From an uncultured Acidobacteriia bacterium (GTDB lineage Bacteria; Acidobacteriota; Terriglobia; Bryobacterales; Bryobacteraceae): 64,000 nt of DNA. A program made the translations under genes and the position numbers. Of this stretch, positions 13,117 through 48,363 are shown piece after piece (the first letter of the stretch is position 1; each line of letters starts with the position of its first letter). The stretch is taken from positions 1 to 64,000 of the forward strand of contig CAIYVZ010000024.1 of NCBI GenBank assembly GCA_903929755.1, given 5' to 3'. The notes under the pieces are model-generated. The model made no database searches. It worked only from the letters and a program-made list of their open reading frames with translations, and was not told the DNA's origin.

Positions 13117-13141
13117 CCCCGGCAAGCTCTATACTGATGCT

Positions 13142-17399: not shown

Positions 17400-17469
17400 G
17401 CGTTATTCTAACGAATGTATTTCGCTGTTGCTCCATCCTGATTTGATTCAAAGAATAACGAGGATCCGT

Positions 17470-19434: not shown

Positions 19435-19444
19435 GGAGCAACCA

Positions 19445-30423: not shown

Positions 30424-30467
30424 TGGCCGCAAAACGATCGGTAGTGAACAGTGGCAGTGAACAAGAA

Positions 30468-30505: not shown

Positions 30506-30542
30506 GAATGTCGTTTAAGCTGCGTCTGTTCGGCGCGTGTTT

Positions 30543-30653
30543 TTAGGTGCTGGGGATTTCTTCAGGATCCGAAAATGCGGGCTGTTCCGCATTATGCGGA
30601 TCTTCCTGCTCTTGAATCGGTTCTTCGGTGGGGTTCAACATGTCGTCTATCAT
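30543..30653 (-). CDS. Candidate 36-aa acidic protein downstream of the kinase
   Basis: ATG at 30653, stop TAA at 30543-30545, beginning 11 bp after the kinase stop and ending 37 bp before the strong terminator. The product begins MIDDMLNPTEEPIQEQEDP and is very rich in Asp, Glu and Pro, with no Lys or Arg. GGGAG lies directly before the first ATG, so the Met at position 5 (13 bases from GGGAG) is an alternative start. No family is recognised. The placement between a kinase gene and a terminator argues for transcription; translation is unproven. Confidence 0.45.
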   Translation of the reverse strand: MIDDMLNPTEEPIQEQEDPHNAEQPAFSDPEEIPST

Positions 30654-30664
30654 ACTCCCAAAAG

Positions 30665-32920
30665 TTACCGGAGAGTAGCCGCAAATTTCACGAATTGAGG
30701 GTCGGCACGCAGCGCGGCAAGCTCAGGGTTGCGCTCAATCGTTTCCCGCGGTAGTCCCGAGCTCAGGGCCTCCCGCATCCACTTCAGCGCGTCGCTTCGG
30801 CGGTGCAGGACTTCGTAGCCCTCCGCAACCCGGTACAGAACCTGGGGATTTCCCGGAGCCAGTGCCACCGCCTGCCGCAGCAATGGCTCGCTCTTATCCG
30901 GCATCCCCATAGATGCGTACCAGGAACCCAAAACCGCTATAGTCGAGGCATCTTTTGGGGAACTCTGCAGCGCTGCCGCCGCCACCGCTACCGCCTTCGC
31001 ATAAGCTTCCCGGGCGGCCGCTTTTCCCGACTCGGTCCGGTTTAGCGCCGACGCCAGATTCCCCCAAATCACATAATTCGACGGGTTCATCGCGGCAGCC
31101 CGGCGGTAAACCTCCACCGCCTCCGCATCCTTACCCTGAAATTGCAGAATTGTGCCCAGATTCGACAGCGTGCCGAACGCTGGCTCCAGCGCCAGCGATT
31201 TTTCGTACGCCGTCTGCGCCTCCGCCAGACGGTTCAGTCTCCGGTAGGCAAGGCCCAGATTGTTCCATGCCCGAGGGTTGTCGGGATTTAGCTTCACCGC
31301 CGCTTCAAACTGCCTGGCGGCTTCCCCGTTTTTCCCCACCGAGAAATAGTAAAGCCCCAACTGATTCAGGTATCGCCATTGCCCCGGCTCAAGATCCACC
31401 GCTTTCTGGAAAGTGGGTTCCACGTCCCCGGTTCGGCCCTGCTTCTGGTACAGTTCCGCCAGTGCCGCGTACAATTCGGCGCTCTGCGCGTTCAACGCAC
31501 GGGCCTTTTTCAGTTCCTCGGCGGCCACATCCAGGCGACCAGCTTCCGTGTAGATCATCGCCAGCGTCACATGCGCCGTGGCTGTTTCGGAATCCAATTC
31601 CAACGCCCTGCTGCTGGCGCTCTTCGCCTTTTCCAGAAACGCTGCCTCGCGGGTATCTCGGTACCGTTGCCAGTATGCCCGTCCCAGCCCCGCGTATCCC
31701 GTCGCGGAGGCGGGGTCGCCAGCCACCACCCGCTCCAGTAATTTCACGGCGCTCTCCACGCTTTGTGGCTGGTAATAGTGGTCCAGCAGGTCCTGTGCCT
31801 TCAGATAGTCCGCATGCGCGCTCGCCACCCCGGGCAGCAACTTCCGCCCCACACCCGAAAAATACAGCGTTCCCCCCAACAACAACACGGCGGCCGAAAT
31901 CCCATACCGGAACCACCGGGCCCCGCGCTTCCCGTCCGGTGTGCGGCTTGCCGTTCCCGTGAAACCGCCACTCTCAGCCAGCGCTTCAATCAATTCTCCC
32001 GCGCTCGCGTAACGATTTCCAGGCTCCCGGTCGATCGTCTTCTCAATTACCCTGGCCAACTGACTCGGCAGGTCCGGCCTTGCATCCATCAGGCGCTTCC
32101 ACACCCCGGCTTCATGCGCCGTTCTTAACGAGGGGAAGCTGCTTCCACTGTAGGGGTGCAGCCCCGTCAACAGGTAGTACAGCAGGACTCCCGTTGCAAA
32201 TATATCGGTTGAAATCGATGCCGGTTCACCGTGCAGCAGTTCCGGAGCCAGGTAGGGCAGCGTTCCCGCCAGTTCCTCACGCGCCTCGTGCCGGTGCGTC
32301 AGCCCGAAATCCATCAACAGAATTCGGCCACCCTGCTCGCGCATCACGTTCGATGCTTTTACATCGCGGTGCAGCATGCCCGCCGCATGAACCGCGCTCA
32401 GCGCCTTCGCCACATCGATACCGATATGCGCCACTTCCTGCGGTCCAAATGGCCCTTGTACCGCCAAAACCGCGGAAAGCGTCTTGCCGTGAACGAATTC
32501 GGTCCAGAAGCCGGGCCGATTATCGTGAATGTCAACTCCGTAAACCGGCAATACGTTCGGATGCCGTACCCTCGCCATCGAACGAGCCTCGCGAAGCGCC
32601 CCGGCCTGATCCTCCTCCGGTACCGCGCCCGCCAGCAGCAGCTTCAGCGCCACTTCCCGCTCCAGCACCGTATCGTAAGCCCGATACACAACCCCAAACG
32701 ACCCCTGGCCCACCCTCTCCAGCAGCTGGAAAGGTCCCCATGTTCCGCCCGCTTCCGCCACCATCCCGAGCTCGCGCGCCGTGATGGTCATCGTGGGGGT
32801 GCCCCGCTCGCCCAATTCACGCTCACGCATTTGAACGGTCGGCAGTTCCGAAATGCCGACCGGCACCTGTTCCGCCGCATGGTAAAGCTCTTCCTCTGCG
32901 CGCTGCCCCTCAGGTGTCAT
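30665..32920 (-). CDS. Ser/Thr protein kinase with C-terminal TPR domain
   Basis: A 751-aa membrane protein. Residues 62-325 are a Hanks-type kinase: glycine loop GQGSFG (71-76), catalytic Lys in VALKLL (93), HRDVKASN (184-191), DFG (204-206) and TLPYLAPE in the activation segment. A single transmembrane helix (about 338-356, YGISAAVLLLGGTLYF) follows. The extracytoplasmic or distal half (about 375-740) is made of some nine TPR units (for example YLNQLGLYYFSVGKNGEAARQFEAAVKLNPDNPRAWNNLGLAYRRL). All catalytic residues are kept. It probably phosphorylates a regulator; the facing ECF sigma factor is one candidate. Confidence 0.95.
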   Translation of the reverse strand: MTPEGQRAEEELYHAAEQVPVGISELPTVQMRERELGERGTPTMTITARELGMVAEAGGTWGPFQLLERVGQGSFGVVYRAYDTVLEREVALKLLLAGAVPEEDQAGALREARSMARVRHPNVLPVYGVDIHDNRPGFWTEFVHGKTLSAVLAVQGPFGPQEVAHIGIDVAKALSAVHAAGMLHRDVKASNVMREQGGRILLMDFGLTHRHEAREELAGTLPYLAPELLHGEPASISTDIFATGVLLYYLLTGLHPYSGSSFPSLRTAHEAGVWKRLMDARPDLPSQLARVIEKTIDREPGNRYASAGELIEALAESGGFTGTASRTPDGKRGARWFRYGISAAVLLLGGTLYFSGVGRKLLPGVASAHADYLKAQDLLDHYYQPQSVESAVKLLERVVAGDPASATGYAGLGRAYWQRYRDTREAAFLEKAKSASSRALELDSETATAHVTLAMIYTEAGRLDVAAEELKKARALNAQSAELYAALAELYQKQGRTGDVEPTFQKAVDLEPGQWRYLNQLGLYYFSVGKNGEAARQFEAAVKLNPDNPRAWNNLGLAYRRLNRLAEAQTAYEKSLALEPAFGTLSNLGTILQFQGKDAEAVEVYRRAAAMNPSNYVIWGNLASALNRTESGKAAAREAYAKAVAVAAAALQSSPKDASTIAVLGSWYASMGMPDKSEPLLRQAVALAPGNPQVLYRVAEGYEVLHRRSDALKWMREALSSGLPRETIERNPELAALRADPQFVKFAATLR

Positions 32921-33364: not shown

Positions 33365-33853
33365 ATGCTGACGAAGACCACTATCTCCGCCATTCGTACT
33401 CTCCTCTTCCTCGCCGAGCGCGCTGAGCCCGGCGTCGTCTCTCCCAGGGCCCTCGCAGAAGCTCTCGTCGTTTCTCCCACTTATCTCGCCAAGACTGTCG
33501 GCTCCCTCGTCAAAGCGGGCCTGCTTCGCGCCGAAAAGGGTTCTCGCGGCGGTGTTGCCCTCAATCTCCCCCCTGCCCGAATCACTCTCCAGGCTATCTA
33601 CGAAGCCTGCCAGGGTGTCGTGATGGGCGATTACTGCACCTCCGGGGCCGATCCAAAGTCGGTCTGTTCCTTCCATCAGGCCTCCGTGGAACTCCATTTC
33701 GCTATCGTTGGTGTTCTGTCTCGCTGGACTCTTGCCGATCTTCTCGAAAGGCCGCGTTCCGCACGTCTTCACAGCTCCGGTCATGTCTGCGTTATGGTCG
33801 GCGATATTGTTCCTCTCCCCTCCCTCGCAGCGGAAAGGCCACCCTGGGGCTAA
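33365..33853 (+). CDS. Rrf2-family regulator with three cysteines
   Basis: ATG at 33365 gives 162 aa. The winged helix is MLTKTTISAIRTLLFLAERA ... SPTYLAKTVGSLVKAGLLRAEKGSRGGVAL. Cys82, Cys91 and Cys101 lie in the loop YEACQGVVMGDYCTSGADPKSVCSFHQ, the place and number of Fe-S ligands in NsrR and IscR. A redox- or NO-sensing Fe-S cluster is therefore likely. The stop is 3 bp before the GltD-like gene, making this the first gene of the respiratory operon and its probable local regulator. Confidence 0.9.
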   Translation: MLTKTTISAIRTLLFLAERAEPGVVSPRALAEALVVSPTYLAKTVGSLVKAGLLRAEKGSRGGVALNLPPARITLQAIYEACQGVVMGDYCTSGADPKSVCSFHQASVELHFAIVGVLSRWTLADLLERPRSARLHSSGHVCVMVGDIVPLPSLAAERPPWG

Positions 33854-33856
33854 CTC

Positions 33857-35779
33857 ATGCAAACGGGCGCGCTTCTCAATGTGCAGGTTCCGGGCGAACA
33901 ATACCATGCGGGGTTAATAGCCTGCCAGGTAGCCTGCCCCGTCCACACGGACGCCCGCGGCTATATCCGGGCTATCGCTGCCGGCCGCTTTGAAGAAGCC
34001 TATCTGATTGCCCGGGGACCCAACCCCTTCGCCTCCATCTGTGGCCGAATCTGCGGCGCCCCCTGTGAAGCCGCCTGCCGTCGAGGTAAAGTCCCCCGCG
34101 TCGATGACGATGGCCGTTTCGTCGCCACTGACCGTCCCGTCTCTATCCGGGCCCTGAAACGCTTCGCCTGCGACGTGGCCGGACCGGAATCCCGCCCCGC
34201 CGCTGAAGTTCTCGCCGCCGTTCAGGCTTACGCCCCCTCCGGCTCCGCCCAGGCTGAAGAAATGGCGGCCCTCCTGCATGCCGGCGTGGACCCCCGCGTT
34301 CGCAAGGCCGATGGCGAGCGCATTGCCATCATCGGAGCCGGGCCTGCCGGACTTTCCGCCGCCCATGACCTGGCTCTTCTCGGCTTCCGCCCCGTTGTCT
34401 TCGAAACCGAACCCGTCGCCGCCGGCATGCTCTCTGTCGGCGTCCCGGCCTATCGCCTGCCCCGCGAGGTGATTGCCCGTGAAGTTGCCGTTATCGCAGC
34501 CCTCGGAGCCGAAATTCGCTGCGGCGTTTCCATCGGCAAAGACATTTCGTTCGCCGACCTCCGCCGTGACTATGCCGCCGTCATCCTCGCCGTTGGCGCC
34601 AAGTCCTCCCGTGGCCTCGGTCTCGAAGGGGAACAGGGTCCGCGTGTCTATGGCGGCGTCGATCTCCTCCGCGCCGTCGCCCTCAATGAACCTCTGGATA
34701 TCGGCCACGAAGTCGTCGTCATCGGCGGTGGCAATGTCGCGTACGACGTCGCTCGCACCGTTGTCCGGCAAATCGCTTACGATACGGCCCGGACCGCGCT
34801 CCGCCTCGCCGGTACGCCGCACGTCCGTCTCGCCTCTCTCGAAGGTCTGGAAGAAATGCCCGCCGATACCGTCGAAATCGTCGAAGGTGATGAAGAAGGG
34901 GTCGAACGTCTCAACGGCTGGGGCCCCCTTGCTGTTGAACGTGATGGGGAAGGCGCAGTCACCGGCGTTCGCTTCCGCCGTTGCCTCCGCGTCTACGACG
35001 AGAATCGCCGCTTCTCGCCCATTTACGACGATGCCGATATCCGCGTCGTCCCCTGTGACACCGTCCTGCTCGCCGTCGGCCAGGCCCCGCGCCTCAACTT
35101 CCTCGACGACGGCGGCCAGGATATCGAAATGGCGCGCCCCGGCTGGCCAAAGCTCCGGCCCGGCAGTCTCGAAACCACAGCCCCAGGCGTCTTCGTCGCA
35201 GGTGATCTCGCCCACGGTACCCGTCTCGTCATCGACGCAGTTGCTTCCGGCAAAGCTGCCGCCCGCGCCGTCTATCACAGCGTCGTCGGGGCAGAGCTCC
35301 ACGCCGATGCCGTCACCGGCCACCTGATCCTGGAACACTATCGCCGCGAACGTGGCTATGAAGCCACCCGCCGCCAACACGTGCCCACCGTCCATGCGGC
35401 CAGCCGCCTCACCCGGCCTGACGCGATTGTGGAAGCCGGTTACGACAGCACCCAGGCCATTCTCGAAGCGGGCCGCTGCCTCGATTGCGGCGTCACCCCC
35501 GTCTTTGATGGCGTCCGCTGCGTTCTCTGTGGCGGCTGTGTCGACGTCTGCCCCACCCAGTGCCTCAAGCTCGTTCCGCTCTCGCAACTCACCGGCGACG
35601 CAGACTTCTCAGCCGCCATCCACAACATCCTCGGCCCCGCCCCCGACCTGCATCTCAACTCCGCCATCGTCAAGGACGAAGACCGCTGCATCCGCTGCGC
35701 CCTCTGCGCCATGCGCTGCCCAGCCGATGCCATTTCCATGGAACGAGTCACTATCTCAACCACCTGGAGGTCCGTATGA
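33857..35779 (+). CDS. FAD/NAD(P)-dependent Fe-S oxidoreductase, GltD-like with C-terminal 4Fe-4S domains
   Basis: A 640-aa cytoplasmic flavoprotein. The N-terminal GltD-type Fe-S region has Cys23, 27, 62, 66, 70 and 74 ([33 protein letters not shown]). The FAD site is [17 protein letters not shown] (about 156-172) and the NAD(P) site [16 protein letters not shown] (about 285-300), followed by FVAGDLAHG for FAD. The C-terminus adds [20 protein letters not shown] (555-569) and [12 protein letters not shown] (611-622), a ferredoxin-like tail. It is longer than GltD and resembles oxidoreductases that pass electrons between NAD(P)H and a membrane complex. The ATGA overlap with the Rieske gene points to such a complex. 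Confidence 0.9.
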
Positions 35780-36261
35780 CCCATGAACCGAACGCGATTC
35801 CTTCACGCCTCGATCCCGAACGAGTCCCCCGCCGCGACCTGCTGGGTCTCACGGCCCTGTGGACTGCCGCCGGAACCCTCTTCTTCTCCGTCGTAGGAAT
35901 GATGCGAATCCCGAAGGCAGCAGTCCTCTCCTCGCCCTCGAAGAAGTTCCGGGTCGCCCTGCCCGATACGCTCGCTCCAGGTGTTGCTTACGTGCCGCCG
36001 GGGCGCTCCGTAGCTCTCTTCAAAGATGAAAAAGGCGTCCACGCCATCTCCACCATCTGCACCCATCTGGGCTGCATAGTCCGGCCCGAAACCGCCGGCT
36101 TCGAATGCCCCTGCCACGGCTCCCGCTACGACGCCGCCGGCGTCGTCACCAAAGGCCCCGCCCCCAAATCTCTCCCCTGGCTCAAAGTCGTCAATGCGGG
36201 CGGCCAGTTCACCGTCGATGAAGGCGCCACGGTTCCCCCTGGAACAAAGGTGTCGGCATGA
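35776..36261 (+). CDS. Rieske 2Fe-2S protein of a cytochrome bc-type complex
   Basis: ATG at 35776, overlapping the preceding stop and preceded by GGAGG, gives 161 aa. A short N-terminus with [25 protein letters not shown] forms the membrane anchor, with Tat-like arginines. The cluster-binding loops CTHLGC (95-100) and CPCHGS (111-116) are complete, followed by GPAPKSLPW. It transfers electrons from quinol to the c-type hemes. It overlaps the cytochrome b gene by 4 bp. Confidence 0.96.
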
Positions 36262-37817
36262 GCGTGAAAGAACCCCCGTCTGCACCCACCGCCCTGCAGG
36301 AATTCGTCACCAACCTGAAGGCCGCGCCGCGCCGCATCGCCGAAACCGCTGTCCGCAGCGGCACGCCCGACACGGACCGCACACGTTCCACCTTCATCTT
36401 CGGCAACGTCTTTCTCCACCTGCATGCCGTCCGCACCCACCGCTGGACTCTTCGCTGGGCCGCCACCCTGGGCCTCGGAATCGCCAGCGTCGCAGCCTTC
36501 CTACTCACCCTCATCACCGGCGTCCTGCTGATGTTCTACTACAAGCCGTACACCGACGTCGCCTACCAGTCCATCAAGGACATCCACTTCGTCGTTCCCA
36601 CCGGGCGCCTCATCCGCAACATCCACCGCTGGGCCGCCAACGTGATGGTCGTTACCGTCATTCTTCACATGGCGCGCGCTTTCTACACGGCCGCCTATCG
36701 CAAACCCCGCGAGTTCAACTGGCTCATCGGCATGGGCCTCCTCGTCGTCACCTTAGGCCTCTCGTTTACCGGCTACCTTCTTCCCTGGGACCAGCTCGCC
36801 TACTGGGCCATCACCATCGGCGCCAACATCGCCCAGTCGCCCCGCGAAGTCACCGACGCACTCGGCCTCACGGATGTCTTCGATCCCGGTGGCCTGCAAA
36901 AGCTCCTGCTTCTCGGCTCCGATGCCGTCGGCGCTGAAGCCCTCATCCGCTTCTACCTGCTCCACGTCATGATCCTGCCGCTCGCGCTCGCAGCCCTGCT
37001 TTCCGTTCACTTCTGGCGCGTTCGCAAGGATGGTGGGCTGGCCAAACCCGCCGACGTGGACCAGCGCCTCGGCACCCCCACTGTGCCCACCTATCCCGTC
37101 TTTACCATGGCGCCCAATAAGACCTACCAGCTGGCCGCCATCGTGCGCGGCCGTACCCCCGCCGTTGGCCGTGGCCCCGAAAACACCGTGCCCTCCATGC
37201 CGCACCTGTTCTATGCGGAACTTGGCGTTTTCATGCTCACCGTTCTCGTCTGCGTCGCCCTCTCCGTCTGGTCGGACGCACCGCTCAAAGAGCTCGCCAA
37301 TCCCCTCGTTCCCGAGAACCCCGCCAAAGCCCCCTGGTACTTCCTCGGCCTCCAGGAACTGGTCGCCTTCTCGGCCTTTGCCGGGGGTATTGTCGTCCCG
37401 TCCATCGTCCTTATCGGCCTCGGCCTCATCCCCTATCTCGATCGCTCCGATGTGGGTACCGGCCTCTGGTGCGGCGGTCCCGGCGGCTGGCCTCTCGTTC
37501 GAAGATCCATTGCCGTCGGTCTCGGAATCGCCCTCGCCGTCGAAGCCTTCATCATTCGCTTCGGCTGGCTCCGCGAGTGGATCCCCGGCATTCCTCAGCT
37601 CGTCATTACCGTCGTCAATCCCGGCACCGTCATCACTCTCCTCTATGGCGCCTGGTCCGTTTGGATGGTCCGCCGTTTCAGTTCCGCCCGCGCTGGCGCC
37701 CTCGCACTCTTTACCTGTTTCCTGTGTGGCTTCGTAGTCCTCACCATCATCGGGACTTACTTCCGTGGCCCCAACTGGGGCTTCTACTGGTCGCCCGCCG
37801 ACTGGCCCAAACATTAG
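36258..37817 (+). CDS. Cytochrome b, N- and C-terminal parts fused
   Basis: A 519-aa membrane protein holding both the b6-like half and the subunit-IV-like half. Heme ligands are [16 protein letters not shown] in helix B (13 residues between the His) and [17 protein letters not shown] in helix D (14 between), the b6-type spacing. The Qo motif is [11 protein letters not shown] in place of PEWY, a form seen in menaquinol-type enzymes. [13 protein letters not shown] is the usual Qo helix region. A soluble loop (about 255-310) joins the halves. With the Rieske protein and the heptaheme cytochrome this makes a Rieske/b complex. Confidence 0.95.
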
Positions 37818-37847
37818 CCGCCAAACCTGACACAGAAGCGTGATGCC

Positions 37848-39554
37848 ATGAAAAAGAACAAATACCTTCTGCTTCTCTCCAGCCTCGGAACCCTCATCCT
37901 TCTCGTCGGCGCTGCCGTCCAGGAGAACTTCGGCAAAGACTGGCGCAAAATCCAGGCCACCGCCCACTCCGACGAAGGCCCCATTCCCGTCCAGCTCCGG
38001 CAGATCGTCAACGGCACGCTTCGAACCAGTGATCGCTGCGTCTCCTGCCACGTCGCCATGGGCCCCGGCGAACAAAGCGTCACCGGTTCCCCCCTCTTGG
38101 TCCAGCACAAGAAAGTGGTCCACGACCCCGCCGAGTATGGCTGCGCCATTTGCCATGGCGGCCAGGGCCAGGCCACCGAAAAAGAGGCTGCTCACGGCGA
38201 AGTCGAGTTCTGGCCGGAGCCCATGCTCCCCGCCTCCCGCAGCTACGCCGGGTGCGGCACCTGCCATGCCACGCTCCATGTTCCCAATCACCAGACTTAC
38301 CTGCGGGCTCGCGCCACCTTTGAGCGCCTCGATTGCCGCACCTGCCACCGCGTCAATGATCGCGGCGGCACCGTTCGCCCCGGCGGCGGCAGCCTCGAAG
38401 GTCCGGACCTCTCTCGCGTCGGCCTCGCCGGTTACGCCGCCGACTGGTATCCCCGCCATCTGCAGCACGTCTCCGACGCCGCTTCCGCCACCGCGCCCAG
38501 TCCCCCGCCCAGTGCCCCGCCCAGTGCATGGAAGACTGCCTTCGCGCCCGTCTCCGGCGAAGACCAGGCAGCCGTTAAAACTTATCTTGATCTCCTCGTC
38601 GGAGCCCCCCAGTTCGTGGAAGCCAAATCCGTCTTCAATTCCTCCGGATGCCTCGGTTGTCACAAGATCAGCGGCGTTGGCGGCGACGAAGCCACTGATC
38701 TCTCCCGCGCCGGCGAACGCGACCCCGGCCAACTCCCCTTTCATGAAGTAGCAGGCCGTCCCACTCTTGAAAACTGGCTCGGCGAACACTTCCGGTCCCC
38801 CTCCGGCGTCGTAGCCAATTCCCGCATGCCCGCCCTCGCCGTCTCCGATCAGGACATCGACTGGCTCACCTTCTACGTCCTCTCCCTGCGCCGCCGCGAA
38901 CTTCCCTCCACCTACGTCCCCCGCGACCGCGTCCGCGCCACCAAGCTCGGCGAACGCGAATACGCGGACGATGGAGCCACTCTGTTCGGCACCTTCTGCG
39001 CCGGGTGCCACGGCCCCAAAGGCCTCGGCCGCCGCTCCCCCGGTATGCCTTCGTTCCCCTCCATCGCCTCGCCCGGCTTCCTCGCTCTCGCTTCTGATGA
39101 CTTCCTCATCGCCACCATCCGGCAGGGCCGCCCAGGCCGCCGCATGCCCGGCTGGGAGAGGGATGGTGGCCTCACCCGCGACGATATCGCCAAAGTGGTC
39201 GCATGGCTCCGCGAGACCAGCGGAACGCAGGCAAAACCCGATCCCAAACCGCGCCGGTGGGTGGAAACGGGGCAGGGCACTGCCGACAAAGACCTCGGCA
39301 AGCGTCTCTACGCCGCCTCCTGTTCCGGTTGCCACGGCGACAAGGGGCAGGGCATTGAAGGCCCCGCCCTCAACAACCAGATCCTGCTCGCCAACGCGAC
39401 CGATACCTTTCTCGCCGAAACCATCTCCGGCGGCCGCGAAGGCACCTCCATGCAGGGCTTTCTCGCGGGCTCCTCATCCCGGCGCTCGCTCTCTCCACAG
39501 GAAATTGAAGCTGTCATCGCCTTTATTCGCACTTGGGAGGTAACCAGGAAATGA
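37848..39554 (+). CDS. Heptaheme c-type cytochrome
   Basis: A 568-aa protein with an uncleaved-looking N-terminal membrane helix ([19 protein letters not shown]) and seven CxxCH sites: CVSCH (64), CAICH (99), CGTCH (136), CRTCH (163), CLGCH (268), CAGCH (384) and CSGCH (492). The first four are packed in a NapC/NrfH-like or multiheme domain. A Pro-rich linker ([11 protein letters not shown]) separates them from three mono-heme cytochrome c domains. It probably replaces cytochrome c1 and carries electrons from the Rieske protein towards the molybdoenzyme. Its stop overlaps the start of the alpha subunit. Confidence 0.93.
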
Positions 39555-42500
39555 AGAATTCAGAAGCATTGTCCGCGGCTTCGTCAAACGAGGGCCGCCG
39601 CGACTTCCTCAAACTCGTCGGCAAAGCCGGCTTCGGCGGCTTCCTCGCCTCCGCCCAACAGGCCTGGGGCCTCGACGCCATCGCCAACCCTCTCGCCGCC
39701 TATCCCGACCGTGGCTGGGAACGCGCCTACCGCGACCTCTGGAAATACGACTCCAAATACACCTTCCTGTGCGCCCCCAACGACACGCACAACTGTCTCC
39801 TCAACGCCTATGTCCGCCAGGGCGTCATCACCCGCATCGGTCCTTCCATGCGCTACGGCGAGGCCATGGACCTCGACAAAAATAAGACCAGCCACCGCTG
39901 GGACCCCCGCATCTGCCAGAAAGGTCTCGCCCTCACCCGCCGCTTCTATGGCGATCGCCGTGTGAACGGCTGCATGGTTCGCGTCGGCTTTAAAAAATGG
40001 GTCGAAGCTGGCTTCCCCCGCGAAAAAGACGGTCTCCCGCCCAAGGAATATTTCAACCGCGGCCGCGATAAATGGGTCCGCCTCACCCACGATGAAGCCG
40101 CGAAATTCGTCGCCAGTGCCCTTACCAACATCGCCCAAACCTACACCGGTGACGAAGGCAAGCGCAAGCTCGCCGCCCAGAAGTACGACCCCGCCACCAT
40201 CGAAGCCACCCAGGGCGCCGGAACCCCGGTTCTCAAGTTCCGCGGCGGCATGCCTCTGCTCGGCATCACCCGCATCTTCGGCATGTATCGCATGGCCAAT
40301 TCCATGGCGCTTCTCGATAACTACATCCGCAAGCTGGGTCCCGAAAAATCCGTCGGGGCCAAGGGCTTCGATAACTACTCCTGGCATACCGACCTGCCCC
40401 CCGGCCACCCCATGGTCACCGGCCAGCAGACCGTCGAATTTGACCTCTGCACCGTGGAGCAGGCGAAGACCGTAATCGTCTGGGGCCTCAACTGGATCAC
40501 CACCAAAATGCCCGATGCGCACTGGCTCACCGAAGCCCGCCTCAAAGGCACCAAAGTTGTCGTCATCGCCTGCGAATACTCCGCCACCGCTACCAAGGCC
40601 GATGAAGTCATCGTGGTCCGCCCCGGCGTCTCGCCCGCCCTCGCTCTCGGCTTCGTCCATGTCATCCTGCGCGAAAATCTCTATGACGCCACCTACGTCA
40701 AGCAGTGGACCGACCTCCCTCTTCTCGTCCGCATGGACACCCTCAAGCACCTCAGCGCCCAGGACGTTTTCGGTGGTCCTGTCGCCGAACTCAAGCACTC
40801 CCGCGTCCTCCGCGGCAATGAGAAAGAACCGCCGCCCGCAACGCATACTGACCAGCTCATTCCCGAAAAACTCCGCAACGAATGGGGCGACTACGTCTGG
40901 TGGGATCGCACTTCCAACTCACCTAAAGCTCTCAATCGCGACCAGGTCGGCAAAAACTCAGACGTGGAGAATCCTCTCCTCGATGGCTCCATCGAAGTCA
41001 CTCTCGCCAATGGCAAAAAGGTCCGCTGCCGTCCCGCCTTCGATCTCATTCGCGAATACGTCGCCCACTTCGATCCGAAGACCACCGAAGAGCTCACCTG
41101 GGCTCCTGCCGCCGCCATCGAAAAGCTGGCCCGCGACATCGCCAAAAATCCCGGCACAACGTTGTTCGCCATCGGCATGGGGCCCAACCAGTTCTTTAAC
41201 AACGACAACAAGGATCGCGACATCTTCCTGCTCGCGTCCCTCACCGGCAACGTCGGGCGCATTGGCGGCAATGTCGGATCTTACGCCGGTAACTACCGCG
41301 TCTCCATGTTCAACGGCTCCGGGACATACATCAACGAGAATCCCTTCGATCTGGAACTCGACCCCGCTAAACCGGCACGTCCCCGCCAATACTGGAAGGC
41401 CGAGTCCGCCCACTATTACAACCATGAGGACCACCCTCTCCGCGTCGGTAAAAAGCTTCTTACCGGCTCCACTCATATCCCGTGCCCCACCAAGTCGCTC
41501 TGGTTCGCCAACGCCAACTCCATCCTCGGCAACGTGAAATGGCACTACAACACCGTGGTCAACGTCCTGCCCCGCATCGAGATGATTGCGGTGAATGAGT
41601 GGTGGTGGTCCACCTCCTGTGAATGGGCCGATATTGTCTTCGGCGTGGATGCCTGGGCGGAACTGAAGCACCCCGACATGACCGCGTCCGTCACCAACCC
41701 CTTCCTCACCGTCTTCCCCCGCACGCCCATGAAACGGGCCTTCAATACGCTTGGCGACATTGAAGTCCTCGCCCTGGTCGGCTCCAAAATGGCCGAGATC
41801 ACGAAGGACCAGCGCTTCGCCGATTGCTGGAAATTTGTCCGCGAGGGCCGCATGGAAGTCTATCTCCAGCGCATCCTCGATAACTCCAGCTGCACCAAAG
41901 GCTACCGTTTTGAGGACCTCGAAGCCAAAGCCCGCGAAGGCATTCCCGCCATCATGATGAACCGCACCACCGGCAAGAACATCGGCTACGAACAAGTCAC
42001 CGACTCCGTCCCCTGGTACACCAAAACCGGCCGCCTGGAATTCTACCGGCCTGAAGATGAGTTCATCGAAGCCGGTGAAAATCTCCCCGTCCACCGCGAG
42101 CCCGTCGATTCCACCTTCCTCGAACCCAACATCATCATCGCGCCCAAACACGAGGCCATGCGCCCCGCCAGTCCCGAATCCTACGGCGTCAAGCGCGACG
42201 ATCTTTCCTGCGACGTTCGCTGTGGCCGCAACGTCGTCATGGCCTGGCCCGAAGCGAAAAAGTCCGTTCACCCTCTGCGCAAAGACGGCTTCAAGTTCAT
42301 CTTCCACACCCCCAAGTACCGCCACGGCACCCACACCATGCCCATCGATACCGACATGATCGCCGTGCTCTTCGGACCCTTCGGCGATCTCTATCGTCAC
42401 GATCGCCGCATGCCCTTCGTCAGCGAAGGCTACGTCGATATCAACCCCAACGATGCGCACGACCTCGGCGTCCAGGACGGCGATTATGTCTGGATCGATG

Positions 42501-43060
42501 CCGACCCCGAAGACCGCCCCTTCCGCGGCTGGCAGAAGAACGCGAAAGACTACGAGTTCTCCCGCCTCATCTGCCGCGCCCGCTACTACCCCGGCACCCC
42601 CCGCGGCATTACCCGCATGTGGTTCAACATGTACGGCACCACCCCCGGTTCCTTCGAAGGCCAAAAGGGACGCGTCGATGGCCTCGCCAAAAATCCCAAC
42701 ACCAATTACCAGGCCATGTTCCGCTCCGGCTCCCACCAGTCCGCCACCCGCGGCTGGCTCAAGCCCACCCTCATGACCGACTCTCTTGTCCGTAAAAACT
42801 TCTTCGGCCAGGGCCTCGGCAAGGGCTTCCTGCCGGACACGCACTGTCCCACCGGCGCACCCCGCGAATCCTTCGTCAAGATCACCAGGGCCGAAGCCGG
42901 TGGAGCCGACCTCAAGAGCGCGTGGCGTCCTGTTGGCCTCGGCATCCGCCCCCGCAACGAGTCCGACGTCATGAAGAAGTATCTGGCGGGCGAATTCTAC
43001 TCCGGGCAATCCGCCGCAGTTCCGGCCCCGGCAAAACGCACTTCGAAGAAGGAGAAATAA
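39551..43060 (+). CDS. Molybdopterin oxidoreductase alpha subunit, type II DMSO reductase family (NarG-like)
   Basis: ATG at 39551 (ATGA overlap) gives 1169 aa. The Tat-type leader is [24 protein letters not shown], so the enzyme is exported. The Fe-S motif is CAPNDTHNC then RICQKG: Cys74, Asp78, Cys82, Cys122, so the second ligand of the usual Cys set is Asp. [20 protein letters not shown] corresponds to the NarG segment that holds the Mo-ligating Asp, here Asp281. Further bis-MGD contacts are seen ([45 protein letters not shown]). NarG, PcrA, SerA, DdhA and EbdA share this fold; the substrate (nitrate, nitrite, (per)chlorate, selenate, a sulfide or a hydrocarbon) cannot be fixed. Confidence 0.92.
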
Positions 43061-43064
43061 AGTC

Positions 43065-44192
<1,128 letters not shown>

Positions 44193-44221
44193 CGGACGCG
44201 GAGCAACTAAGGAGAATAGCC

Positions 44222-45088
44222 ATGCGAATTCATTCCTCAATGTTGGCCGTCCCGGCGATTCTGCTCTCGCTCGGGATCCTGAACGGCTGTGGCAGGAAAG
44301 CCGAGCGTACCAATGAGGTGGTCGCCGCCTCCGCCGCCCGCCTTCCGCTCGACCCTCTCGATCCCGCCTGGGCAGAAGCTCCCGGCCACGTCGAAAAGCT
44401 CATCCTGCAGGACCTCGTGGAACCCCGTCTCATGAAGGCTTCCACCCCCGAGATCCTCGTCGAAGCCCTCACCAGCGGCTCCGAAATCGCCTTCCGCCTC
44501 AGCTGGCCCGACGAAGCCGTCAATGACCTTCCCGGAGCCGGGCGCTTCCTCGATCAATGCGCCGTTCAGATCCCCAGGGCCATCGAAGCCGATGCCCCCG
44601 CCCCCCAAATGGGCGAAGCCGGCCGGCCCGTCGAAATCTCCTTCTGGCGCGCCGACTGGCAGGCCTCCGTCGATGGCCGCAAGGACAACATCAATGCCCT
44701 CTTCCCCAACGCCGCTATTGACCACTACCCCTTCGAAGCCAAACCTCTCGACCCCGGTTCATCCGATCAGAAGGAGATGGCCACCCGTTACGCACCCTCG
44801 CAGGCTGTCGGCAACCGTCGCGTCGGCCCGCGCGAAACGCCCGTCGAAGACCTTCTCGCCGAAGGTCCCGGTACGTTGAGCCCCGCCCCCGCCCGCATCT
44901 CTCGCGGCATGGGCGTCAGAACCAAAGAAGGCTGGGCCGTCGTCATCATTCGCAAGCTCCCGGAGGGCCTCACCCCCAGGCGCCGCTCTGCCGTCGCATT
45001 TGCCGTCTGGCAGGGGTCGGAACAGGAAGCCGGAGCCAGAAAAATGCGCAGCGGCTGGGTCCCTCTCGCCCTGCGTGCCGCCAAGTAA
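44222..45088 (+). CDS. Molybdoenzyme gamma subunit, heme b lipoprotein of the EbdC/PcrC/SerC type
   Basis: A 288-aa protein. The N-terminus has a lipoprotein signal (MLAVPAILLSLGILNGC), so it is anchored to a membrane outside the cytoplasm. The fold matches the ethylbenzene-dehydrogenase-related heme b domain: LILQDLVEPRLMKAS, IAFRLSWPD, CAVQIPRA ... PQMGEAGRPVEISFWRADWQ, where the Met is the likely axial ligand, and a C-terminal ARKMRSGWVPLAL with a Lys as possible second ligand. It would exchange electrons with the heptaheme cytochrome c. Confidence 0.85.
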   Translation: MRIHSSMLAVPAILLSLGILNGCGRKAERTNEVVAASAARLPLDPLDPAWAEAPGHVEKLILQDLVEPRLMKASTPEILVEALTSGSEIAFRLSWPDEAVNDLPGAGRFLDQCAVQIPRAIEADAPAPQMGEAGRPVEISFWRADWQASVDGRKDNINALFPNAAIDHYPFEAKPLDPGSSDQKEMATRYAPSQAVGNRRVGPRETPVEDLLAEGPGTLSPAPARISRGMGVRTKEGWAVVIIRKLPEGLTPRRRSAVAFAVWQGSEQEAGARKMRSGWVPLALRAAK

Positions 45089-45100
45089 ACCGAGGCCATT

Positions 45101-45748
45101 ATGCCCGACCAAATAACGCCGGAAATAGAAGCTCTGCTCCGCGACGCCGCCGAATGGCGGCTGCTGGGCCTGCTGTTCGAATGTCCCTCTGACGCCTGGC
45201 AGAGCCAGCTCGCCGCGCTCGCCGCCGAAGTTCACGATCCTGACCTTCGCGCCGCCGCCGCAGAGGCAAAACCCGAAGCCGAAGAGGGCATGTACCACTC
45301 CATCTTCGGCCCCGGAGGCCCCGCCCCACCTCGCCAGGCTACCTATCACGAATCCATGGAACTCGGCTACCTCATGTCGTCCCTCCACACCAGCTACCAC
45401 GCCTTCGGCTACGCCCCAGCCACCCCGGAACCGGTTGACCACGTGGCCGTCGAAATTGGCTTCGTCGCCTGGTTGAAGTTTAAGGAAGCCTTCGCCCGAT
45501 CTTTCGGCGATCTCGAAAAAGCCGAACTCGCCCGCGACGCCGCCGCCCGCTTCATTGCCGATTATCTGTCCACCATGGCTGAACCTCTCGCCAATATCCT
45601 CAGCCACTCCGGCATCGAATACCTCGTGCTGGCCGGCAAAGTCCTCCGCCAGCGATCCGGGCCGAAGAAACAGCCCTTGAAAGCCCATGCCAGCCACTTC
45701 CCCATCTTTGGCGATGCCGAAGCGTCCTTTGAATGCGGAACCCTCTGA
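45101..45748 (+). CDS. TorD/NarJ-type molybdoenzyme chaperone
   Basis: A 215-aa cytoplasmic helical protein: AAEWRLLGLLFECPSDAWQ, the YHSIFGPGGPAPPRQATYHES region (family motif YxxLFxxPxGGxxxxxYES) and DHVAVEIGFVAWLKFKEAFAR. Such chaperones hold the alpha subunit while the cofactor is inserted and check the Tat leader before export. The place in the operon directly after the structural genes supports this. Confidence 0.9.
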   Translation: MPDQITPEIEALLRDAAEWRLLGLLFECPSDAWQSQLAALAAEVHDPDLRAAAAEAKPEAEEGMYHSIFGPGGPAPPRQATYHESMELGYLMSSLHTSYHAFGYAPATPEPVDHVAVEIGFVAWLKFKEAFARSFGDLEKAELARDAAARFIADYLSTMAEPLANILSHSGIEYLVLAGKVLRQRSGPKKQPLKAHASHFPIFGDAEASFECGTL

Positions 45749-45760
45749 GGGAGACCTGCC

Positions 45761-45916
45761 ATGCCCCGCCCCTTCGCCCGCTTCCCCTTTTTCGACTGGA
45801 TGAACAACCGCCGCTACAACGCGGCCTTCATCCGTCGGCCCGACGTCACCCTCACCGACTGTCTCGGCTACGCCAATGGCCGCCCGGGCTACCTGGAGGC
45901 CACATGGCGATTTTGA
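45761..45916 (+). CDS. Small uncharacterised protein, 51 aa, inside the molybdoenzyme operon
   Basis: ATG at 45761 follows the chaperone stop by 12 bp, with GAGGGAG 8 bases upstream. The stop at 45914-45916 lies 13 bp inside the next gene, so the coupling looks translational. The product starts MPRPFARFPFFDWMNNRRY and ends GRPGYLEATWRF. It is aromatic and basic, has one Cys, and lacks a signal peptide or membrane helix. No family recognised. The ribosome site, tight packing and GC-rich third positions make it a likely real gene; a role in enzyme assembly is only a guess. Confidence 0.65.
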   Translation: MPRPFARFPFFDWMNNRRYNAAFIRRPDVTLTDCLGYANGRPGYLEATWRF

Positions 45917-46518
45917 CCCGACCGCGCGGCCGCCTCCTCGTCATCGGAGGCCACAGCCGCGGCGTCGGCAAAACTTCTGTCGGTTCCGGTCTGATACGCG
46001 CGCTCACCCGCACCGGCCACTCCTGGAGCGCCGTCAAAGTCTCCAGCCACCGCCACCACATCGAGGACCCTGCATTCCAGCCGCAACTCGAAGTGGCCGC
46101 TCCCTCCGATACCACCCAGGCTGGCCGCTACCTCCTCGCCGGTGCCTCCAGCGCCTTTCTGCTGCGCTCTCCCGACGCTTTTCTCGCCGCCGCCGCCGAG
46201 CTTCTTGAACGCCTCCTGGCCCGCGGCCACAATCTCCTCGTCGAATCGAATCGCCTCGCCACTATCCTGCCGCCTGACCTCGTCATCTTCGTCACCGACC
46301 CGGCCAATTCCGATTGGAAGTCATCCTCGGACGCCTGCCTCAGCCAAGCCCATGCGTTGATCATCGCCGGCTCCGCCGACCCAACCTCTTACCCCCCATC
46401 CTGCTCCGCATATGCAATCCCCCATTTCGCAGTCGACCGCGCCACCTGGGGCTCCGCTCCTCTAAGCCAATGGGCCATCTCCCACTTCAGCCGCTCAGGC
46501 CCTGACTCACAAACTTGA
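45904..46518 (+). CDS. MobB-like P-loop protein
   Basis: ATG at 45904, with TGGAGG upstream, gives 204 aa. The N-terminus has a Walker A motif (LLVIGGHSRGVGKTSVGSGLIRALTRTG), followed by VKVSSHRHH and a Walker B-like LLVESN. This fits MobB, the GTP-binding helper of molybdenum cofactor guanylylation, which agrees with a bis-MGD enzyme in the same operon. The C-terminal third is less typical. It is the last gene of the operon. Confidence 0.75.
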   Translation: MAILTRPRGRLLVIGGHSRGVGKTSVGSGLIRALTRTGHSWSAVKVSSHRHHIEDPAFQPQLEVAAPSDTTQAGRYLLAGASSAFLLRSPDAFLAAAAELLERLLARGHNLLVESNRLATILPPDLVIFVTDPANSDWKSSSDACLSQAHALIIAGSADPTSYPPSCSAYAIPHFAVDRATWGSAPLSQWAISHFSRSGPDSQT

Positions 46519-46747: not shown

Positions 46748-47356
46748 ATGCAAACAAAGCGAGATCAGATAGCTGCGCGCATTCACCGCTTCGGTAACGG
46801 AAAGGCTTTCTCGGCCAAGGACTTTCTCGATTTGGCCAGCCGGACGATAATCGATGTAACGCTTGCGGCGCTTACCCACGACGGCAAGATCCGCCGCGTT
46901 CGGCGGGGTCTTTATGACCGGCCAAACATCAATCCGTCTCTTGGTGGAGTGCTGACCCCAGACATCGATGAGGTCGCTCGCGCGATTGCACGCAAGCTGC
47001 GCTGGAAGATCGTCCCCGATGGCGCTTGGGCTGCAAATCTCCTGGGGCTTTCCACGCAGGTGCCCTCGAAGATCATCTACCTCACTGATGGCGCTAATAA
47101 AGAAGTCCCCATTGGCCAGCGGATAATCTATTTCAAACACGCCCGCCCCAAAGCGATCGCCGGACTTGACGGGAAATTCGCGCTCGTTGTGCAGGCGCTT
47201 CGGCACTTAGGTAGGGAAGGCGTGGGAACCCAGGAGATCGCGACGCTGCGGTTGGCGCTCTCTCAGGCCGAGAAGAGCAGACTCTTGAAAGACACCCGCT
47301 TCGGCGCGGACTGGATCTATGACGTTGCGAAACAGCTGGCCGAGGCGACATCGTGA
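46748..47356 (+). CDS. AbiEi-like antitoxin (DUF6088 type)
   Basis: A 202-aa protein with an N-terminal winged-helix domain (AARIHRFGNGKAFSAKDFLDLASRTIIDVTLAALTHDGKIRRVRRGLYDRP), typical of DUF6088/AbiEi antitoxins, and a C-terminal domain (DGAWAANLLGLSTQVPSKIIYLTDGANKEVPIGQRIIYFKHARPK) that in this family antagonises the toxin without direct binding. Overlaps the nucleotidyltransferase gene by 4 bp and carries an operator-like dyad upstream. Confidence 0.88.
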   Translation: MQTKRDQIAARIHRFGNGKAFSAKDFLDLASRTIIDVTLAALTHDGKIRRVRRGLYDRPNINPSLGGVLTPDIDEVARAIARKLRWKIVPDGAWAANLLGLSTQVPSKIIYLTDGANKEVPIGQRIIYFKHARPKAIAGLDGKFALVVQALRHLGREGVGTQEIATLRLALSQAEKSRLLKDTRFGADWIYDVAKQLAEATS

Positions 47357-48363
47357 ACCGTATCGCTCAGATGAGCACCCGGGAGCGCGCCGGAATATTC
47401 CAGGAAACCGCGGCCCGGAAGGGACTGGCGAACGCCATTGTGGAAAAAGATTTCTGGGTCTCCTGGCTACTGAAACAGCTCTTCTCCATCCCAGCGCTGG
47501 AAGGCCGGCTTCTGTTCAAGGGGGGCACCTCTCTCGCGAAGGTGTTCCATGCGATCGACAGATTCTCAGAGGATGTCGATCTGGCGGTCGATTATGCCGC
47601 GCTCGGCTTTGCAGGTGACCGCGATCCGCGGCAGGAGGGGATCTCAAAAACACGCCGCGGCCTAATCCTCGAACAAATGTTGGAAGCGTGCCGCGATTAC
47701 GTGAGCGGCCCGTTCCTCAGAACGCTCGGCGCGCGATTGCAGGACATTCTCGGGGAGGGACCATGGAAGCTGGGCGTCAGTCCGCAGGACCCGAACATCG
47801 TACACTTCGCTTACCCTGCCGCCAATCCTGGCCGTCTTGATTACATTGCTCCCCATGTGGTGCTTGAGTTGGGTACGCACGCCGAGTTCGTGCCGCATGA
47901 TCGTTTTACCATCAAGTCATTCGTGGCGGAAGAATTTCCCAACGTCGTTGAAGACGCCGAGATTGGCCTGCTTGCGCTGCTGGCAAAGCGAACCTTCTGG
48001 GAGAAAGCCACGATCCTGCACGCGGAATACTACCGTGCGCCCGAGAAGTCCGTCCCGGCGCGGTACTCCCGCCATTATTACGATGTCGCACAACTGGTCC
48101 GGGGACCAATCCCGGCGGAAGCCCTCGGAGACATGGCGTTGTTGGCTGATGTAGTGCGGCATAAACAGACCTTCTATCCTGCCGCTTGGGCGCAGTATGA
48201 GCTTGCGCGAGCCGGGTCACTTCGGCTGCTGCCGCCCGCATCTCGAATAGCGGCACTGGAGCGGGACTACCGGAATATGAGGGTGATGATCTTTGGCGAA
48301 CCGCCACAGTTCGCCGGAATCATGGAAGCACTCGCAACACTTGAGAAGGGGATAAACAGATGA
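47353..48363 (+). CDS. abiEii: AbiEii-like nucleotidyltransferase toxin
   Basis: A 336-aa protein starting at GTG 47353. The diagnostic motif is LLFKGGTSLAKVFHAIDRFSEDVDLAVD (GGTS 57-60; metal Asp74 and Asp76). Further conserved parts are EKDFWVSWLLKQLF before it and RHYYDVAQLVRG, the late helix of the family. Type IV toxins of this kind add nucleotides to tRNA or other targets and cause abortive infection by phage. Its stop overlaps the start of the third gene by 4 bp. Confidence 0.93.
   Translation: MNRIAQMSTRERAGIFQETAARKGLANAIVEKDFWVSWLLKQLFSIPALEGRLLFKGGTSLAKVFHAIDRFSEDVDLAVDYAALGFAGDRDPRQEGISKTRRGLILEQMLEACRDYVSGPFLRTLGARLQDILGEGPWKLGVSPQDPNIVHFAYPAANPGRLDYIAPHVVLELGTHAEFVPHDRFTIKSFVAEEFPNVVEDAEIGLLALLAKRTFWEKATILHAEYYRAPEKSVPARYSRHYYDVAQLVRGPIPAEALGDMALLADVVRHKQTFYPAAWAQYELARAGSLRLLPPASRIAALERDYRNMRVMIFGEPPQFAGIMEALATLEKGINR

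What the first reader, a model, noticed from the sequence alone, without database searches (positions are those of the whole stretch)
33365..46518. Operon joining an NAD(P)-flavoprotein, Rieske/cytochrome b, heptaheme cytochrome c and a NarG-like molybdoenzyme
Eleven genes run in one direction with gaps below 35 bp or ATGA overlaps: an Rrf2 regulator, a GltD-like FAD/Fe-S protein, Rieske, cytochrome b, heptaheme c, Mo alpha, beta and gamma, a TorD chaperone, a small protein and a MobB-like protein. Canonical nar, pcr, ser or ebd operons do not carry their own Rieske/b complex together with an NAD(P)-flavoprotein subunit. Rieske/b complexes with NAD(P)-oxidoreductase-like partners have been proposed in anammox bacteria. 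The layout suggests a dedicated supercomplex that may split quinol electrons between NAD(P) and a high-potential Mo enzyme, or run as a reductase chain.
Basis: partly seen in the sequence, partly recalled or inferred. Interest (0 to 1): 0.8.

Follow-up and report, generated by a model that had tools for sequence, protein, structure and literature searches.

The report
Nitrate-linked NAD-coupled Rieske/cytochrome b complex
In this Acidobacteriota genome one operon joins a nitrite-oxidoreductase-like molybdenum enzyme to a Rieske/cytochrome b complex and an NAD-binding flavoprotein, a machine that most likely uses nitrate to push part of the electrons from quinol uphill to NAD, and the same core recurs in other phyla with other oxidant-reducing enzymes.

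Summary
The operon is real: eleven co-directional ORFs, 33365-46518, gaps at most 30 bp. The 'NarG-like' alpha is more precisely NXR-like: its best solved relative is Kuenenia NXR (833 bits; PcrA 170, NarG 126), in a clade (A) sister to canonical NXR, with the nitrate/nitrite active-site residues kept. Flavoprotein, Rieske, b6-plus-five-helix subunit and multihaem c match the NAD(P)-linked Rieske/b complexes of anammox bacteria, including a nearly invariant extra His at about the place of their proposed dimer haem. The joint order is kept in 24 of 30 fetched clade A loci (4 cut by contig ends, 2 without it) and occurs in Planctomycetota, Poribacteria and 'Abyssobacteria'. Among 80 named flavoprotein loci the partner is NXR-like in 9, PcrA/NarG-like in 5, NapA-like in 8, a cbb3 oxidase in 18, and unrecognised or cut off in 40. 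These partners belong to families that reduce high-potential acceptors; one clade A operon continues into nrfHA. Best reading: nitrate-driven, quinol-bifurcating NAD+ reduction. Complex formation, bifurcation, direction and substrate are inferred, not shown. Rieske/b beside nitrate reductase is known in haloarchaea; the NAD(P)-linked version is known as a proposal for anammox.

The parts
33365..33853 (+). Rrf2-family regulator (first gene)
   Evidence: Pfam Rrf2 78.3 bits; TIGR00738 over cut-off
33857..35779 (+). FAD/Fe-S flavoprotein, GltD/NfnA-like, NAD-binding (fad)
   Evidence: Pyr_redox_2, Fer4_20, Fer4; best PDB NfnABC 9bov/9bp5; Leu-Glu instead of Arg-Arg in the nucleotide site, 103 of 103 rows
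35776..36261 (+). Rieske [2Fe-2S] protein, one N-terminal helix, CPCHGSRY motif
   Evidence: Pfam Rieske; best PDB 9rk4 = Kuste4569; helix
36258..37817 (+). Cytochrome b: b6 part (4 helices) fused to a five-helix subunit-IV part
   Evidence: Cytochrome_B families; nine helices; His54
37848..39554 (+). Membrane-anchored heptahaem cytochrome c
   Evidence: seven CxxCH; Cytochrom_C; one N-terminal helix
39551..43060 (+). NXR-like molybdopterin alpha subunit with Tat-type RR signal (read by eye)
   Evidence: 7b04 833 bits; clade A; active-site residues
43065..44192 (+). Fe-S beta subunit, NxrB-like
   Evidence: 7b04 chain A 371 bits
44222..45088 (+). Haem b gamma subunit (EB_dh), lipobox-type Cys23, Met/Lys haem ligands
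   Evidence: PF09459; 7b04 NxrC; motifs
45101..45748 (+). TorD/NarJ-type chaperone
   Evidence: Nitrate_red_del; TIGR03482 below cut-off
45761..45916 (+). Small ORF, 51 aa
   Evidence: reading frame; weak short matches only, L042 E 6e-5 over 31 aa
45901..46518 (+). P-loop protein, weakly MobB-like
   Evidence: MobB E 0.029, under cut-off; relatives in L047, L048 at 46%

Best explanation
The operon encodes a respiratory machine that couples nitrate reduction to NAD+ reduction. Quinol, probably menaquinol, is oxidised at the positive-side site of the cytochrome b. One electron goes to the Rieske protein, the heptahaem cytochrome c, the gamma haem, the Fe-S chain of beta and the Mo site of alpha, where nitrate becomes nitrite outside the cytoplasmic membrane. 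The other electron goes through the b haems, and perhaps an extra haem shared by the dimer (ligand His54), to the Fe-S clusters and FAD of the cytoplasmic flavoprotein, which makes NADH. The first, downhill branch pays for the second, uphill one. Shown by sequence: the parts, their order, its conservation, cofactor ligands and predicted topology. Inferred: physical complex, bifurcation, direction, nitrate as substrate, quinone type, NAD rather than NADP.
For: Alpha, beta and gamma all hit Kuenenia NXR best. FS0 ligands C67/D71/C75/C115, substrate Asn70 and Mo ligand Asp275 named in PMC8387239 are all kept; gamma haem ligands: Met 25 of 25, Lys 24 of 24 rows with sequence there. Fad-Rieske-b-c upstream of alpha in 24 of 30 clade A loci. 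Rieske closest in the PDB to Kuste4569, measured at +303 mV. The two structural relatives that PMC12954380 reports for the Kuenenia flavoprotein (9bp5, 5t5i) are both among the window flavoprotein's sequence hits. Extra His in 77 of 77 rows (one, L088, out of frame there), with Arg-Lys 202-203 residues on (204 in Kuenenia), and not found in two ordinary cytochromes b of this genome. The core's partners elsewhere are PcrA/NarG-like, NapA-like and cbb3 oxidase; with cut-off loci left unlabelled, well-supported branches of the flavoprotein tree force at least 3, 2, 4 and 1 label changes for NXR, PCR, NAP and CCO. NrfA in 19 of 32 clade A genomes against 78 of 364 others, Fisher p 1.1e-5; nrfH-nrfA directly after torD in G275 and 2.5 kb off in G026. 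RIC or hemerythrin genes near L041, L049, L053, L062, L067.
Against: No biochemical data. G000 itself has no NrfA and no NirK over cut-off, so the nitrite's fate is unknown; NirS was not sought. It has two CtaD-like oxidases, so aerobic nitrite oxidation is possible, and Kuenenia NXR works both ways (PMC8387239). The Fisher test ignores shared ancestry. L063 and L064 have alpha without the core within about 9 kb upstream, and the Natronococcus relative also lacks it. L151 has the flavoprotein without Rieske or b within 10 kb. No haem cN Cys in the window's cytochrome b, unlike the Kuenenia models. The Kuenenia cytochrome b was not aligned. Quinone type not tested. Label changes on the tree may be gains or losses.
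Confidence: 0.5

Rival explanations
1. Reductase chain without splitting, or NADH as donor: the flavoprotein feeds NADH electrons into the b haems or the quinone pool, and the Rieske branch carries them to nitrate. All steps are downhill.
For: Thermodynamically simple; flavoproteins of this kind can work either way (general knowledge); PcrA/NarG-like, NapA-like and cbb3 partners fit a plain oxidant branch just as well.
Against: The genome has other b-type complexes (L206, L207) and CtaD-like oxidases for ordinary respiration; the Rieske type and the extra His match the published uphill scheme better (PMC12954380).
Confidence: 0.22
2. Nitrite oxidation: alpha-beta-gamma oxidise nitrite, electrons go through the heptahaem c to oxidases, and the Rieske/b/flavoprotein unit runs in reverse to make NADH from them.
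For: Closest solved relative is NXR; Nitrotoga NXR lies in a sister clade of the Nitrospira/anammox lineage (PMC6050957 section 9); G000 lacks NrfA and NirK over cut-off and has CtaD-like oxidases.
Against: The same core sits with NapA-like, PcrA/NarG-like and cbb3 enzymes, families that reduce; NrfA is enriched and twice linked in clade A genomes; the RuBisCO-family hit of G000 is closest to OiaX, so no Calvin-cycle autotrophy is seen.
Confidence: 0.14
3. Another oxyanion, such as chlorate, perchlorate or selenate, is the substrate.
For: Type II DMSO reductase relatives use these (general knowledge); TIGR03479 matches, but far below its cut-off (301 of 985 bits).
Against: Asn, Mo-Asp and FS0 pattern of NXR kept; PcrA and EbdA are much more distant; nrfHA linkage in one clade A operon.
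Confidence: 0.06
4. Two ordinary complexes under one regulator: a normal Q-cycle Rieske/b complex feeding a nitrate reductase, with the flavoprotein in an unrelated cytoplasmic role.
For: Qcr feeds Nap in Campylobacter jejuni (PMC6195509 abstract); Rieske/b and nitrate reductase share a cluster in haloarchaea.
Against: A cytochrome b gene lies near the flavoprotein in 74 of the 80 named loci, whatever the terminal enzyme, and all four core genes in 68. Of the six without it, five are on short or cut contigs around the flavoprotein; L151 is not.
Confidence: 0.08

Closest known systems
Kuenenia Kuste4569-4574 and Kustd1480-1485 Rieske/cytochrome b complexes (anammox)
   Same: GltD/Nfn-like flavoprotein, Rieske, b6-like cytochrome b, five-helix subunit IV, multihaem c; proposed NAD(P)+ reduction by quinol bifurcation; an extra His in the cytochrome b at about the same spacing
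   Different: Partner there is an octahaem HAO-like protein or unknown, here an NXR-like enzyme; b6 and subunit IV fused here; no haem cN Cys here; heptahaem instead of hexa- or octahaem
Kuenenia NXR (PDB 7b04)
   Same: alpha-beta-gamma plan, FS0 with Asp ligand, Asn and Mo-Asp, Met/Lys haem b
   Different: 39% identity in alpha; separate clade; gamma here is a predicted lipoprotein; own Rieske/b/flavoprotein operon here
Nitrotoga NXR / Hydrogenobacter periplasmic NAR clade
   Same: Described as sister to the Nitrospira/Nitrospina/anammox lineage, with nitrate reducers in it
   Different: Sequences not at hand, so placement inside it is untested; no Rieske/b/flavoprotein module is mentioned in the section read
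Haloarchaeal nar cluster with Rieske/cytochrome b; Campylobacter Qcr-Nap
   Same: Rieske/b complex feeds an outward-facing nitrate reductase
   Different: No NAD(P) flavoprotein in the descriptions seen; other nitrate reductase families
NfnABC (PDB 9bov, 9bp5)
   Same: Flavoprotein region similar in sequence
   Different: Larger protein (1178 residues); Arg-Arg in the nucleotide site where this family has Leu-Glu

Membership tests
Anammox-type NAD(P)-linked Rieske/cytochrome b complex | GltD/Nfn-like flavoprotein gene beside Rieske and cytochrome b | tested here: met
Anammox-type NAD(P)-linked Rieske/cytochrome b complex | b6-like four-helix part plus five-helix subunit IV | tested here: met
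   nine predicted helices, 4 then 5
Anammox-type NAD(P)-linked Rieske/cytochrome b complex | extra His and Arg/Lys of the proposed dimer haem | tested here: inconclusive
   His54 and R256-K257 at about the published spacing; Kuenenia sequence itself not aligned
Anammox-type NAD(P)-linked Rieske/cytochrome b complex | haem cN | tested here: not met
   no Cys near that place in the window, Cys there in L120, L122, L123 (alignment read by eye; position of the b6 Cys recalled)
Anammox-type NAD(P)-linked Rieske/cytochrome b complex | comigration as one complex; Rieske above +300 mV | not testable with these tools
   needs protein; the motif has the Ser and Tyr of Kuste4569, but several clade A relatives have Phe for Tyr, as Kustd1480 has
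Canonical periplasmic NXR | FS0 3Cys/1Asp, Asn70, Mo ligand Asp275 | tested here: met
   with PMC8387239
Canonical periplasmic NXR | alpha inside the Kuenenia clade | tested here: not met
   clade A is sister to clade B with Kuenenia, SH-aLRT 99 and 100
Canonical periplasmic NXR | nitrite oxidation | not testable with these tools
   assay needed
Nitrotoga/Hydrogenobacter NXR-NAR sister clade | sister to the anammox lineage | tested here: met
   text of PMC6050957
Nitrotoga/Hydrogenobacter NXR-NAR sister clade | groups with Nitrotoga or Hydrogenobacter alpha | not tested
   sequences not fetched
NarG (TIGR01580) | curated cut-off | tested here: not met
   143 of 1084 bits
DMSO reductase type II (TIGR03479) | curated cut-off | tested here: not met
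   301 of 985 bits
Haloarchaeal nar with Rieske/b | same nitrate reductase family and no flavoprotein | tested here: not met
   flavoprotein present here; haloarchaeal Rieske/b sequences not compared

The most novel reading that the evidence does not exclude
A widespread, modular class of quinol-bifurcating Rieske/cytochrome b complexes makes NADH at the cost of different high-potential acceptors. The same flavoprotein-Rieske-b-multihaem c core, marked by an extra haem-ligand His, has been coupled to NXR-like, PcrA/NarG-like and NapA-like molybdoenzymes and to cbb3 oxidases, several times over, in many phyla, and would give cells a redox-driven alternative to reverse electron transport through complex I.
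Probability: 0.4. Interest if true: 0.9.

Novelty: new variant of a known kind. Interest (0 to 1): 0.72.

Why it matters
NAD(P)H made by a Rieske/b complex is so far, in what I read, a proposal for anammox bacteria, which are hard to study. Here the same core turns up in many phyla, joined to enzymes of families with known reactions, so the proposal becomes testable with simple acceptors (nitrate or oxygen). It would add an answer to how low-energy respirers get reducing power, and suggests that some 'nxr' genes in Acidobacteriota genomes belong to a nitrate-reducing chain rather than to nitrifiers.

Tried and rejected
Rejected: NarG, PcrA or EbdA as alpha's family. Rejected: operon split by promoter or terminator, no signal above chance. 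The cbb3 variant in this genome: none of the three haem-copper oxidase regions of G000 shows the core; two are CtaD-like, below that model's cut-off on the fragments scanned, and the third matched no NCBIfam model at 1e-10. Autotrophy from RuBisCO: the hit is closest to OiaX, below cut-off on a fragment. Searching 23 genomes of the class of G396 (genome of L147, titled Candidatus Brocadiia) with the Kuste4569 fragment gave matches in 14, at best 48% identity, so no anammox cytochrome b could be aligned. The 51-aa ORF gave no clear family. The flavoprotein search of plasmids gave one 31% hit, not followed. My first count of label changes (at least 4, 2, 4 and 5) treated cut-off loci as a partner-less class; with those left out it fell to 3, 2, 4 and 1, so one origin of the cbb3 pairing is not excluded. 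Literature: ten searches of the held library; no title or abstract start listed showed an NXR-like enzyme in an operon with a flavoprotein and Rieske/b in Acidobacteriota, but only listings and the passages cited were seen, and subscription papers are mostly missing. Passages of PMC3578206 and PMC6037941 were looked at and not used.

Rows dropped: L067 (alpha split in two ORFs) from the alpha trees; L166 (no HMM match after my translation) from both; L079, L127, L141, L054, L058 from the tree; L063, and flavoprotein ORFs too short, from the flavoprotein tree; L148's distant Mo fragment and the L125 CcoN fragment not counted as partners. G082 was never fetched. L088 is out of frame in the cytochrome b alignment but is still in the 77 rows.
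Full report
OBSERVATION. The ORF list and translations give eleven co-directional ORFs from 33365 to 46518: Rrf2 regulator, flavoprotein (fad), Rieske, cytochrome b, cytochrome c, alpha, beta, gamma, TorD, a 51-aa ORF and a P-loop protein. Pfam confirms the first nine. Gaps run from -4 to 30 bp up to the small ORF. The cytochrome c has seven CxxCH. There is no promoter or terminator signal above chance inside. The last protein is only weakly MobB-like (E 0.029). The window lies in a genome of 6.86 Mb. It belongs to Acidobacteriota: same-phylum genomes G346 and G149 hold alpha at the same contig coordinates as the genomes of L127 and L141, which are titled Acidobacteria.

WHAT ALPHA IS. Against solved structures alpha scores 833 bits to Kuenenia NxrA, 170 to PcrA, 151 to EbdA and 126 to NarG. 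Beta and gamma also hit Kuenenia NXR best. In a sample of 396 genomes of the phylum, 51 have a match at E 1e-60. They fall in two sets: clade A, 32 genomes at 57% identity or more, and 19 genomes near 40% (group B). The ten group B rows compared are 58-70% identical to Kuenenia NxrA, so they are canonical NXR relatives. In the tree clade A (38 rows, support 99) is sister to B with Kuenenia (11 rows, support 100), with five PcrA-like rows outside. A haloarchaeal relative, Natronococcus occultus plasmid 2 (47% over 89%), joins the A side on a long branch, so its exact place is unsure. PMC6050957 (section 9 read) describes such a sister clade, with Nitrotoga NXR and the characterised Hydrogenobacter periplasmic NAR; I could not place those sequences.

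ACTIVE SITE. PMC8387239 (passages) names FS0 ligands C67, D71, C75, C115, substrate Asn70 and Mo ligand Asp275 in Kuenenia. The window keeps all of them: C-A-P-N-D-T-H-N-C, the later C-x-K-G Cys, and the Asp of W-H-T-D-L-P-P. The haem ligands Met155 and Lys305 of NxrC correspond to a Met found in 25 of 25 and a Lys found in 24 of 24 clade A gammas with sequence there; in the pairwise alignment the Lys is one place off. Twenty-three of these 25 gammas have a lipobox-type Cys (read by eye), so the enzyme is probably tethered to the membrane.

THE RIESKE/B/FLAVOPROTEIN UNIT. The window's Rieske has as best PDB hit 9rk4, which is Kuste4569. PMC12954380 (introduction, sections 2.5 and 3.3, first part of the discussion, and passages) describes Kuste4569-4574 and Kustd1480-1485: b6-like cytochrome b, five-helix subunit IV, multihaem c and a NAD(P) oxidoreductase, with Rieske potentials of +303 and +335 mV, and proposes NAD(P)+ reduction by quinol bifurcation with a new b haem held by one His from each monomer (His43 or His62, with Arg247 or Arg266/Lys267). 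The structural relatives it names for the Kuenenia flavoprotein, 9bp5 and 5t5i, are both among the window flavoprotein's sequence hits. The window's cytochrome b has four plus five predicted helices. His54 is present in 77 of 77 aligned rows (one, L088, is out of frame there); of the ordinary haem ligands two are in 77 and two in 75 rows; Arg256-Lys257 lie 202-203 residues further, against 204 in Kuenenia. In the same genome two other cytochromes b lack this His, while a third, in an Rnf/PetH-type cluster, has it. The Kuenenia cytochrome b itself was not available, so the identity of the residue is an inference. No haem cN Cys is seen here. The flavoprotein's Cys pattern is kept in relatives. 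Where the two NfnA-type sequences have Arg-Arg in the nucleotide site, all 103 rows have Leu-Glu; from general knowledge of Rossmann folds this suggests NAD rather than NADP.

CONSERVATION. Of 30 fetched clade A loci (L033, L039-L067), 24 carry fad-Rieske-cytb-cytc upstream of alpha (the flavoprotein cut by the contig end in L052 and L054), 4 are cut earlier (L033, L042, L044, L065) and 2 lack it (L063, whose alpha is itself incomplete, and L064). A cytochrome b gene was found in 74 of these loci and all four core genes in 68; five have neither cytochrome b nor Rieske (L109, L125, L137, L145, L151). Nine of the 80 carry the NXR-like alpha, among them Planctomycetota, Poribacteria and 'Abyssobacteria'; 5 carry a PcrA/NarG-like enzyme (TIGR03479 over cut-off in the two tested; PcrA best solved relative in the one tested); 8 a NapA-like enzyme, matching NapA models far below cut-off, one of them (L081) weak; 18 a cbb3 CcoN, confirmed by Pfam as COX1 in the five tested. 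The other 40 show none of these; 19 of them had room by my reading, the rest were short, cut or not assessed. With these last left unlabelled, well-supported branches of the flavoprotein tree (103 rows) force at least 3 label changes for NXR, 2 for PCR, 4 for NAP and 1 for CCO; changes may be gains or losses. So core and terminal enzyme have been re-paired more than once. For example L061 and L062 are 65-67% identical to the window in alpha, while L062's flavoprotein is only 42-45% identical to those of the window's group.

DIRECTION. The partners named above belong to families that reduce nitrate-type oxyanions or oxygen (by family, not by assay). NrfA (E 1e-30) occurs in 19 of 32 clade A genomes and in 78 of 364 others, p 1.1e-5 by Fisher's test, which ignores shared ancestry. 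In G275 a NapC/NirT-type tetrahaem protein and NrfA follow torD on the same strand; in G026 such a pair lies 2.5 kb away on the other strand. RIC (ScdA) or hemerythrin genes were seen near five loci (L041, L049, L053, L062, L067), and RIC and a haem-copper oxidase gene near the Natronococcus relative. Against this, G000 has no NrfA, no NirK over cut-off and two CtaD-like oxidases, so nitrite oxidation cannot be excluded for this organism.

MECHANISM. I take nitrate-driven quinol bifurcation with NAD+ as the low-potential acceptor as most likely (0.5). With potentials from PMC12954380 (menaquinone -70 mV, NAD(P) -320 mV) and PMC8387239 (nitrate/nitrite +420 mV), moving one electron down gives 490 mV and moving one up costs 250 mV, so the sum is favourable if the quinone is menaquinone, which I did not test. 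Complex formation, bifurcation, direction and substrate are inferred.

KNOWN AND NEW. Rieske/b complexes feeding outward-facing nitrate reductases are known: haloarchaea (passage in PMC4683180) and Campylobacter Qcr-Nap (abstract of PMC6195509). NAD(P)-linked Rieske/b complexes are known as a proposal for anammox. Not found in the ten searches listed in Tried and rejected: the two joined in one conserved operon with an NXR-like enzyme of a sister clade, the spread of the core over many phyla, and its pairing with at least four kinds of terminal enzyme. I class it as a new variant of a known kind.

Noticed in passing
L205 (G000:C7:10500-30400), 5676-19901, minus strand: A second unusual Rieske/b6/subunit IV/8-haem c set clustered with a PFOR-like protein (by eye), RnfC, RnfD, an Rnf-Nqr subunit and a PetH-like ferredoxin-NADP reductase (below cut-off); its cytochrome b also has the extra His and RKDGG.
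   Followed up: partly
window 46748-48363: DUF6088 plus AbiEii genes, an AbiE-type toxin-antitoxin pair by family, directly after the operon.
   Followed up: no
L068-L077: Canonical-type NXR alpha (58-70% to Kuenenia) in ten genomes of this phylum, possible unrecognised nitrite oxidisers; gamma there seems fused to cytochrome c in several.
   Followed up: no
L108, L110, L115, L118, L126, L133, L135, L136, L138, L142-L144, L149, L152: Acidobacteriota loci with Rieske-cytb-multihaem c, then CcoN, then the flavoprotein (CcoO confirmed in L149): a cbb3 oxidase joined to the same core.
   Followed up: partly
L096, L114, L117, L119, L132, L139: Actinomycetota version with flavoprotein, cytochrome b, Rieske and a small monohaem c, no terminal enzyme seen.
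   Followed up: no
L209 (Natronococcus occultus plasmid 2), 14001-17177: 47% identical alpha with beta and TorD but no Rieske/b listed nearby; the PLSDB table lists no gene under it.
   Followed up: partly
window 45761-45916: 51-aa ORF; short weak matches in L042 and, on the other strand and upstream, in L113, a PcrA-like locus.
   Followed up: no
window 29821-32920: Ser/Thr protein kinase with TPR repeats on the minus strand, next to a sigma-70-family factor at 29821-30423.
   Followed up: no
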